Source: Candidatus Adlerbacteria bacterium RIFOXYC1_FULL_48_26 (GTDB taxonomy: Bacteria > Patescibacteriota > Minisyncoccia > Phycocordibacterales > SBAW01). Taken from it: 39,858 bases of DNA. The notes under the pieces were generated by a model. It did not search any database and was not told the origin of the DNA. It worked only from the letters and a program-made list of their open reading frames with translations. Numbering within the stretch: the first letter of the stretch is position 1; the number at the start of each line of letters is the position of its first letter. Positions 15,888 through 18,263 of the stretch are shown piece by piece. A program made the translations under genes and the position numbers. The stretch lies in NCBI GenBank assembly GCA_001773575.1, contig MEXB01000002.1, positions 1 to 39,858 of the forward strand. The letters run 5' to 3'.

Positions 15888-16097
15888 ACAGCTAATTCTA
15901 CCTCAAAAGAGGGGAGTCACTCCCCCAAGTTTTGTAGATTTTTTTGTAAATATTTTTATAGTTTTTTATCAAACCAAATGGTGGGGATGTCAGAAATAAT
16001 TCCCAGACGCGCGCAGGGAAGAGAATGGGGCACAAAGTATAAGTCCGGATTTAACTGATCTGGGCCCAAGGGGATACCGGGTTTGAATATGGTTATA

Positions 16098-16172
16098 CGT
16101 CGCACAATATACCTTTTGCGACGCTTATTAGGCTCAATATAGAGGGGGCCTGGTCTAGGCCATGTTTGAGCC
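16098..16172. ncRNA. Intergenic double-hairpin region (possible structured RNA or leader)
   Basis: CGTCGCA/TGCGACG (16098-16104/16117-16123), then GGCTCAA/TTGAGCC (16131-16137/16166-16172) enclosing GGCCT/AGGCC (16147-16151/16157-16161). Confidence 0.35.
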
Positions 16173-16622: not shown

Positions 16623-16645
16623 AACAGGGGAGTCACTTCCCTGTT
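16623..16645 (+). terminator. Putative terminator hairpin
   Basis: AACAGGG...CCCTGTT stem downstream of 16610; no long T run. Confidence 0.45.
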
Positions 16646-16649
16646 GGAT

Positions 16650-16678
16650 TTGACACATATTTATATATGTGGTAACCT
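16650..16678 (+). promoter_or_regulatory. Promoter of ncRNA element B
   Basis: TTGACA - 17 nt - TAACCT; predicted +1 = 16685, first base of the closing helix. Confidence 0.65.
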
Positions 16679-16684
16679 AGATTA

Positions 16685-16830
16685 GCTCCAGGGGAACTTA
16701 TGCCCCACATAAGCTAAAGCTTGGGTGTTTCCCCACAGATTCTTTAACGACGACACCGGGATCTGTTCATCTTAGCCTGCCCCTGGAGCAACACATCCGG
16801 CCGCCACTCGAAAGATTGGCGGCCTTTTTT
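16685..16830 (+). ncRNA. Candidate structured ncRNA (element B), three-way junction plus terminator
   Basis: Closing helix GCTCCAGGGG/CCCCTGGAGC (16685-16694/16780-16789), hairpin CTTATG/CATAAG (16697-16702/16708-16713), CAGAT/ATCTG, then terminator GGCCGCCACTCGAAAGATTGGCGGCCTTTTTT. Confidence 0.6.
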
Positions 16831-16846
16831 ATACTCACAAAGAAGG

Positions 16847-16874
16847 TTGACAGACTTCCCTTCCGTGGTAGTTT
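16847..16874 (+). promoter_or_regulatory. Promoter of ORF 16906
   Basis: TTGACA - 16 nt - TAGTTT. Confidence 0.5.
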
Positions 16875-16905: not shown

Positions 16906-17193
16906 ATGTCCTTTCAAAAGAGTTCCCACCAGATTCGTCAGAAGCGCGACTATTTCATGAAGTGGAGTGGCTTCTGGGGCATCATCGGAATCGTGTTCCT
17001 CCTACTGTTCATGTTCTCGGGCAGCCCGGAACGGCCCTTCATCCGCGAGATTGTCGTCGTGTGCGGCATCGGCGCAATCGCCTGGTTCGTGGCGATGCTC
17101 GTGTTCCTCATCTGGCACCTCATCGACAGCCACGCTCGGCACAGCACGCCGCGCCCCGTCTTTCCCGTCCCCGACCGATATCGGTCCGCGTAG
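16906..17193 (+). CDS. Hypothetical two-TM membrane protein
   Basis: ATG after AAGGAGAAG SD; two hydrophobic stretches; terminator at 17197-17233. Confidence 0.7.
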   Translation: MSFQKSSHQIRQKRDYFMKWSGFWGIIGIVFLLLFMFSGSPERPFIREIVVVCGIGAIAWFVAMLVFLIWHLIDSHARHSTPRPVFPVPDRYRSA

Positions 17194-18049: not shown

Positions 18050-18077
18050 TTGACGCCCTACCCTTTTGTGCTATTTT
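18050..18077 (+). promoter_or_regulatory. Promoter of ncRNA element A
   Basis: TTGACG - 16 nt - TATTTT; predicted +1 = 18084, first base of the closing helix. Confidence 0.6.
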
Positions 18078-18083
18078 TGTTGC

Positions 18084-18263
18084 GGGTGCTGGAGGGTTCG
18101 CAGTGGTGCCCATCACTGCCGTATGTGTAGCCGGCTCTCTGCCTCGTCCTTGTCTCTCCCCGAGCAGACCTGGTAGATGAGAGTCTCACATATGCCTCCA
18201 GCACCTTATTCTTCAGAAACGTTCTTTGTTCACCAACCGCCAGTCTCTGGCGGTTTTCCTTTT
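18084..18263 (+). ncRNA. Candidate structured ncRNA (element A), three-way junction plus terminator
   Basis: Closing helix GGTGCTGGAGG/CCTCCAGCACC (18085-18095/18195-18205); hairpin GCAGTG/CACTGC (18100-18105/18114-18119); helix CGTATGTG/CACATATG (18120-18127/18187-18194); GGCTCTC/GAGAGTC (18133-18139/18179-18185); TGCCTCG/CGAGCA (18140-18146/18161-18166); terminator ACCGCCAG TCT CTGGCGGTTTTCCTTTT. Confidence 0.7.

What the first reader, a model, noticed from the sequence alone, without database searches (positions are those of the whole stretch)
16650..16830. Second structured ncRNA candidate (element B) with the same architecture as element A
TTGACA-17-TAACCT places +1 at 16685, again the first base of a perfect 10-bp closing helix (GCTCCAGGGG/CCCCTGGAGC). 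Inside, a short linker leads to a side hairpin (CTTATG/CATAAG), immediately followed by a distal arm (CTAA...TTAG, CAGAT/ATCTG), which is the same three-way-junction topology as A. A strong terminator (GGCCGCC...GGCGGCCTTTTTT) follows by ~10 nt. The primary sequence differs from A, so this could be a structural family or two separate RNAs.
Basis: partly seen in the sequence, partly recalled or inferred. Interest (0 to 1): 0.77.

Follow-up and report, generated by a model that had tools for sequence, protein, structure and literature searches.

The report
Orphan folded RNA gene, function unproven
This tiny-genome bacterium carries a short gene with its own promoter and terminator that probably makes a tightly folded, non-coding RNA; it shares its fold with a second RNA nearby, sits in a fast-changing cluster of tiny genes beside a likely chromosome-resolution site, and has an unknown job.

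Summary
Window 16685-16789 has a perfect 10-bp closing helix, a 5' side hairpin and a distal arm, between TTGACA-17-TAACCT and a strong intrinsic terminator. The fold is far better than chance (z -4.4), and no shuffled segment in 1,368 gave a closing helix this strong before a terminator. Nothing in the element competes with the terminator. It is non-coding and has no Rfam, phage, plasmid or family-level sequence relative.

"Same architecture as A" is partly supported. Element A (18085-18205) has a syntenic counterpart A' in a sister species: unalignable sequence, same three-way-junction plan. B, A and A' share a UGCCC P2 loop. A model of B ranks A' (14.6 bits) and A (11.8) above five other strong-closing-helix elements (9.5 or less). 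B itself has no ortholog; in the sister genome its place holds a different tiny gene.

Setting: a lineage-specific array of tiny orphan genes beside a 28-bp 11-6-11 palindrome present in most of the family's genomes, a likely dif site.

Best reading: an independently transcribed, stable, lineage-specific sRNA whose exposed C-rich loops bind RNA or protein; target unknown. Riboswitch, SRP, 6S, DNA-element and coding readings are disfavoured.

The parts
16624..16646 (.). palindromic repeat AACAGGGGAGTCACTTCCCTGTT just upstream of the -35; related palindromes at 15911 and 19375 and in sister genomes
   Evidence: the repeat finder D1/D2; sister sequences
16650..16678 (+). predicted promoter TTGACA-17-TAACCT (-10 weak; TGTGG precedes it)
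   Evidence: sequence; similar TTGAC-16/17-TAnnnT boxes in other units of the array
16685..16789 (+). element B, structured RNA of 105 nt
   Evidence: fold z -4.39; closing-helix control
16685..16694 (+). P1 5' strand GCTCCAGGGG
   Evidence: pair probability at least 0.99
16697..16713 (+). P2 hairpin CTTATG-CCCCA-CATAAG with the UGCCC(C) loop also found in A and A'
   Evidence: pair probability 0.82-0.93; shuffles with such a hairpin plus UGCCC 0.13%
16719..16776 (+). distal arm (P3 region) with CAGAUUC/GGGAUCUG stem and 14-nt loop
   Evidence: MFE and suboptimal folds
16780..16789 (+). P1 3' strand CCCCTGGAGC
16799..16830 (+). intrinsic terminator GGCCGCCACTCGAAAGATTGGCGGCC-TTTTTT
   Evidence: independent of the element in the ensemble
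16847..16874 (+). separate promoter-like site (TTGACA-16-TAGTTT) of the downstream 95-aa membrane-protein gene, arguing that B is not its leader
   Evidence: sequence; same layout in sister array units
18085..18205 (+). element A, the comparison element (11-bp closing helix, 5' P2 hairpin, distal arm); promoter 18050-18077, terminator 18235-18255
   Evidence: z -5.05; promoter and terminator; syntenic structural counterpart in G013:C5:56462-56570
16097..16124 (.). 28-bp 11-6-11 imperfect palindrome ACGTCGCACAA-TATACC-TTTTGCGACGC, candidate chromosomal dif site flanking the array
   Evidence: near-invariant in most of 26 family loci, one copy in the own genome

Best explanation
Element B is an independently transcribed small non-coding RNA. 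RNA polymerase starts at about 16685 from a sigma-70-type promoter and stops at the intrinsic terminator near 16830. The first and last bases of the body pair in a perfect 10-bp helix, so the transcript has no free 5' end and should be stable. That helix presents a 5' side hairpin with an exposed UGCCCC loop and a distal arm with C-rich and purine-rich single strands. B, A and A' are fast-diverging members of one loose three-way-junction family confined to a subclade. They sit in a lineage-specific array of tiny gene units next to a likely dif site. Most likely the RNA acts in trans through its exposed loops, by pairing with G-rich mRNA sites such as ribosome-binding sites (about 0.2 likely) or by binding a protein. 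Shown by computation: structure, independence of the terminator, lack of coding, syntenic structural conservation for A. Inferred: transcription, stability, common descent of A and B, trans action and any target.
For: Fold z -4.39 for B, -5.05 for A, -5.21 for A'. Closing-helix control: 0 in 1,368 shuffles. Terminator independent, P1 at least 0.99. No ORF of 25 aa or more on either strand. Downstream gene has its own promoter-like site. A' lies at the position of A between the same two genes with a different 13-bp closing helix. UGCCC P2 loop in all three; each 0.1-0.4% in shuffles. R1 bits: A' 14.6, A 11.8, against 9.5 or less for five other closing-helix elements. The 127-aa array gene is confined to G000, G013 and G021.
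Against: No ortholog of B in 41 family genomes, so B has no covariation evidence of its own. The UGCCC motif was noticed after the fact. The -10 box is weak. Loop pairing with array ribosome-binding sites is only weakly ranked: A loop 17th of 534, B loop 63rd-64th of 534, A' loop 176th of 543. No expression data.
Confidence: 0.6

Rival explanations
1. B is a cis-acting leader (riboswitch or attenuator) of the downstream 95-aa membrane-protein gene at 16906: a P1-closed aptamer followed by a terminator.
For: Aptamer-like closing helix followed by a terminator; the downstream gene starts about 76 nt after the terminator.
Against: Terminator arm pairs with the element at about 1e-8, so there is no antiterminator switch. 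The gene has its own promoter-like site and Shine-Dalgarno. No Rfam riboswitch match. The gene itself is an orphan with only weak, low-identity matches elsewhere.
Confidence: 0.1
2. B is a divergent housekeeping RNA (SRP, 6S) that Rfam models miss in this family.
For: No SRP, 6S or RNase P RNA reaches the Rfam gathering score in the own genome, and SRP and 6S models find nothing in 41 family genomes.
Against: A housekeeping RNA should be conserved through the family; B is absent even from the syntenic place in the sister genome. It lacks the SRP GGAA-tetraloop arm and the long 6S rod with central bubble.
Confidence: 0.05
3. B is a DNA-level element, for example a recombination or integration signal or a piece of a dif-integrating mobile element; the inverted repeat works as a folded single strand of DNA.
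For: It lies 0.6 kb from a likely dif site inside a hypervariable array. Perfect inverted repeat.
Against: Promoter and terminator flank it exactly. Its inverted repeat is not repeated at other array borders. No integrase or phage gene nearby by Pfam or PHROGs. No phage, plasmid or viral-contig relative.
Confidence: 0.12
4. A and B are unrelated RNAs that share a common, easy-to-evolve shape; B is a young sRNA or transcriptional noise locked into a stable hairpin.
For: Primary sequences differ; R1 scores for A and A' are low (E about 1 and 0.17 in 56 kb). Other strong-closing-helix RNAs of different layout occur in the same genomes.
Against: Shared order P1-P2-P3, UGCCC loop, and higher R1 scores than five control elements.
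Confidence: 0.3

Closest known systems
Orphan trans-acting bacterial sRNAs with C-rich loops (for example Firmicute C-rich sRNAs such as RsaE; from own knowledge)
   Same: Short, independently transcribed, terminated intrinsically, exposed C-rich loops
   Different: No shown target; much stronger closing helix at +1; no sequence relation found (no Rfam match)
Riboswitch aptamers with P1 helix and three-way junction
   Same: Closing helix, junction of two arms, terminator just downstream
   Different: No antiterminator, separate downstream promoter, no Rfam match
6S RNA (RF00013) and Bacteria_small_SRP (RF00169)
   Same: Stable RNA of about 100-190 nt with paired ends
   Different: No match of either model in 41 family genomes; defining motifs absent in B

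Membership tests
Any Rfam 15 family | covariance-model score over the gathering cut-off | tested here: not met
   none; best sub-threshold hit (isrD) rests mainly on the terminator
Loose family with elements A and A' | P1 of 10-13 bp, 5' P2 hairpin within 4 nt, distal arm, terminator or T-run downstream | tested here: met
Loose family with elements A and A' | UGCCC at the P2 loop | tested here: met
   (motif noticed after the fact)
Loose family with elements A and A' | significant covariance-model score | tested here: inconclusive
   A' E 0.17, A E 0.98 in 56 kb; better than controls
Transcription-attenuation riboswitch | alternative pairing between aptamer and terminator | tested here: not met
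Bacterial SRP RNA | RF00169 match | tested here: not met
6S RNA | RF00013 match; long rod with central bubble | tested here: not met
trans-acting sRNA | discrete transcript and base-paired target | not testable with these tools
   needs RNA-seq; loop-target ranking weak

The most novel reading that the evidence does not exclude
B, A and A' belong to a new family of rapidly evolving three-way-junction RNAs that, with lineage-specific tiny proteins, make up a dif-anchored cassette array in this Patescibacteria-like (CPR) lineage, where new small genes and RNAs are gained and replaced one transcription unit at a time.
Probability: 0.3. Interest if true: 0.65.

Novelty: new member of a known kind. 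Interest (0 to 1): 0.4.

Why it matters
Very little is recorded about regulatory RNAs in CPR bacteria; none of the top results of two full-text searches here dealt with them. If the array is what it looks like, it offers a place to watch tiny genes and structured RNAs arise in a reduced genome. As it stands the RNA is an orphan sRNA candidate with a sound predicted structure and no known target.

Tried and rejected
Rfam at gathering and relaxed thresholds: nothing for B. Blastn of B in 41 family genomes: only chance matches of 15-30 nt, read by eye and rejected. Exact closing-helix pattern in 84,980 species genomes: 22 hits in unrelated bacteria, near the roughly 14 expected by chance by my own estimate; none in viral contigs. 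Single-sequence covariance model over the family and over 886 kb of fetched DNA with default filters: only B itself. Descriptor scan for P1-P2(CCC loop)-P3: only A and A' stood out; B was missed because of its bulged P3. Pairing of the P2 loop with array ribosome-binding sites GGAGGGCA: suggestive for A (17th of 534), not for B or A'. MAFFT alignments of A, A' and B did not respect the helices, so no covariation table could be made from them.

Full report
Check of the observation. The sequence at 16650-16830 is as described: TTGACA-17-TAACCT, a perfect 10-bp helix GCTCCAGGGG/CCCCTGGAGC from 16685 to 16789, a P2 hairpin CTTATG-CCCCA-CATAAG two bases after the helix, a distal arm, and a GC-rich terminator with six T. 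RNA folding gives -39.4 kcal/mol against a shuffle mean of -25.8 (z -4.39). With the terminator included, P1 pairs have probability at least 0.99, P2 0.82-0.93, and the terminator arm has essentially no pairing with the element.

Is it more than chance? In the own genome, read in full as 36 stretches, 228 intrinsic terminators had enough upstream sequence to test. Three had a Watson-Crick closing helix scoring at least 18 (base pairs plus GC pairs) that ends within 32 nt upstream and spans 60-200 nt. None of 1,368 dinucleotide-shuffled segments did. B and A are two of the three; the third is a tRNA-like unit listed under things noticed in passing.

Not coding, not a leader. No open frame of 25 codons or more lies in either strand of the element. 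The downstream 95-aa membrane protein has its own TTGACA-16-TAGTTT site and Shine-Dalgarno after the terminator of B, the same layout as the neighbouring tiny gene units in two sister genomes.

Relatives. Blastn and a covariance model of B find nothing else in 41 genomes of the family, nor do searches of phages, plasmids or viral contigs. The locus could be followed by synteny: genome G013 (same genus) carries the Excalibur-like gene, the 127-aa gene, the minus-strand gene, the 55-aa gene and the transglycosylase-like gene in the same order. There, B and the 95-aa gene are replaced by a unit for a 26-aa protein. At the place of A lies A' (G013:C5:56462-56570), with a 13-bp closing helix GTCCTGAGGTGAA/TTCACCTCAGGAC, P2 GCUG-CCCCAAA-CAGC and P3 GACUAA/UUAGUC (z -5.21). 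A and A' do not align in sequence, yet both keep the helices. That is the strongest sign that the shape is under selection, though replacement by another unit of the same shape cannot be excluded.

Are A and B one family? All three P2 hairpins carry UGCCC at the loop. A P2 hairpin with UGCCC arises in 0.1-0.4% of interior shuffles of each RNA; the motif was noticed after the fact. A single-sequence model of B, run without filters over 56 kb, gives A' 14.6 bits and A 11.8 bits. As controls, five other elements with strong closing helices score 9.5 (G016), 6.0, 5.1, 3.3 and -0.4 bits on the transcribed strand. The order of scores follows the topology. Verdict: one loose family is more likely than not, but unproven.

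Setting. Window 16097-16124 is a 28-bp 11-6-11 imperfect palindrome. It is found in most of 26 family loci, usually with 0-3 mismatches, and once in the own genome, while its flanks have diverged. This is the form of an XerCD dif site (28-bp target, PMC3025954). GC skew does not switch sign there, so the assignment is a candidate only. Between this site and the transglycosylase/rpmA block lies a hypervariable stretch of tiny orphan genes, each with its own promoter and terminator. The 127-aa gene occurs only in G000, G013 and G021 among 297 genomes of the order.

Mechanism. Shown by computation: a self-contained transcription unit whose product should fold with paired ends and expose C-rich loops. 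Inferred: a stable sRNA acting in trans. The most concrete target idea is that the UGCCC loop covers the ribosome-binding site GGAGGGCA of the two neighbouring genes (only four such sites precede an open frame in the genome, two of them here). Ranking of loop-target energies does not support it well, so it is kept as a hypothesis at about 0.2.

Limits. No expression data. B has no ortholog, so it has no covariation of its own. Relationship statements rest on three sequences.

Noticed in passing
window 16097-16124: 28-bp 11-6-11 palindrome near-invariant in most family loci examined and single-copy in the own genome: candidate dif site. No GC-skew switch in the window.
   Followed up: partly
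L072:1860-2009 (+), L072:19145-19006 (-); G013 L161:8981-9098 (+), L179:9762-9897 (+), L182:1760-1588 (-): tRNA-like sequences (T-arm GGGTTCGANTCCC, acceptor stem, anticodon-like arm) not called by Rfam (own genome) or ARAGORN, each followed by a sigma-70 promoter, a short RNA complementary to its anticodon-like arm or acceptor, and a terminator. One unit is conserved between the two genomes (76% identity). Antisense duplexes reach -33 to -38 kcal/mol in three cases, though not always beyond shuffled controls. Possibly more interesting than B.
   Followed up: partly
L052:10365-10476 (+): Element C: 112-nt RNA candidate with closing helix GGACTCAGG/CCTGAGTCC, containing GGCTTAGAAGCAGCC, which matches the 23S GTPase-centre hairpin and recalls the SRP AAGCAGCC motif; terminator immediately downstream.
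   Followed up: partly
G016 L131:6170-6051 (-), G021 L130:7104-6976 (-), G021 L130:9364-9474 (+): Further long-closing-helix RNA candidates beside the dif-like site; the first two transcripts share a 5' GGCAGAC.GTTCTG.
   Followed up: partly
G013 L187:75-199 (+) and own L068:1341-1205 (-): RNA candidate with a 17-bp perfect closing helix in G013 and an imperfect counterpart in the own genome after the shared sequence AATATCTTATTATCGTTTTTCTGGAAGC.
   Followed up: no
G013 L185:1839-1986 (+): Strong promoter (TTGACA..TAGGAT) followed by a rod-like RNA of about 148 nt with an AGAGATCTCTAAGCAA/TTGCTTAGAGATCTCT helix; no Rfam match.
   Followed up: no
own genome (window, L042-L076): No RNase P, SRP or 6S RNA reaches the Rfam gathering score in a 96% complete genome; SRP and 6S are also undetected in all 41 family genomes.
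   Followed up: partly
window 15911, 16627, 19375: Short palindrome GGGGAGTCACTCCCC and variants, at promoter -35 regions of array units and also inside an exonuclease gene; similar copies in sister genomes.
   Followed up: no
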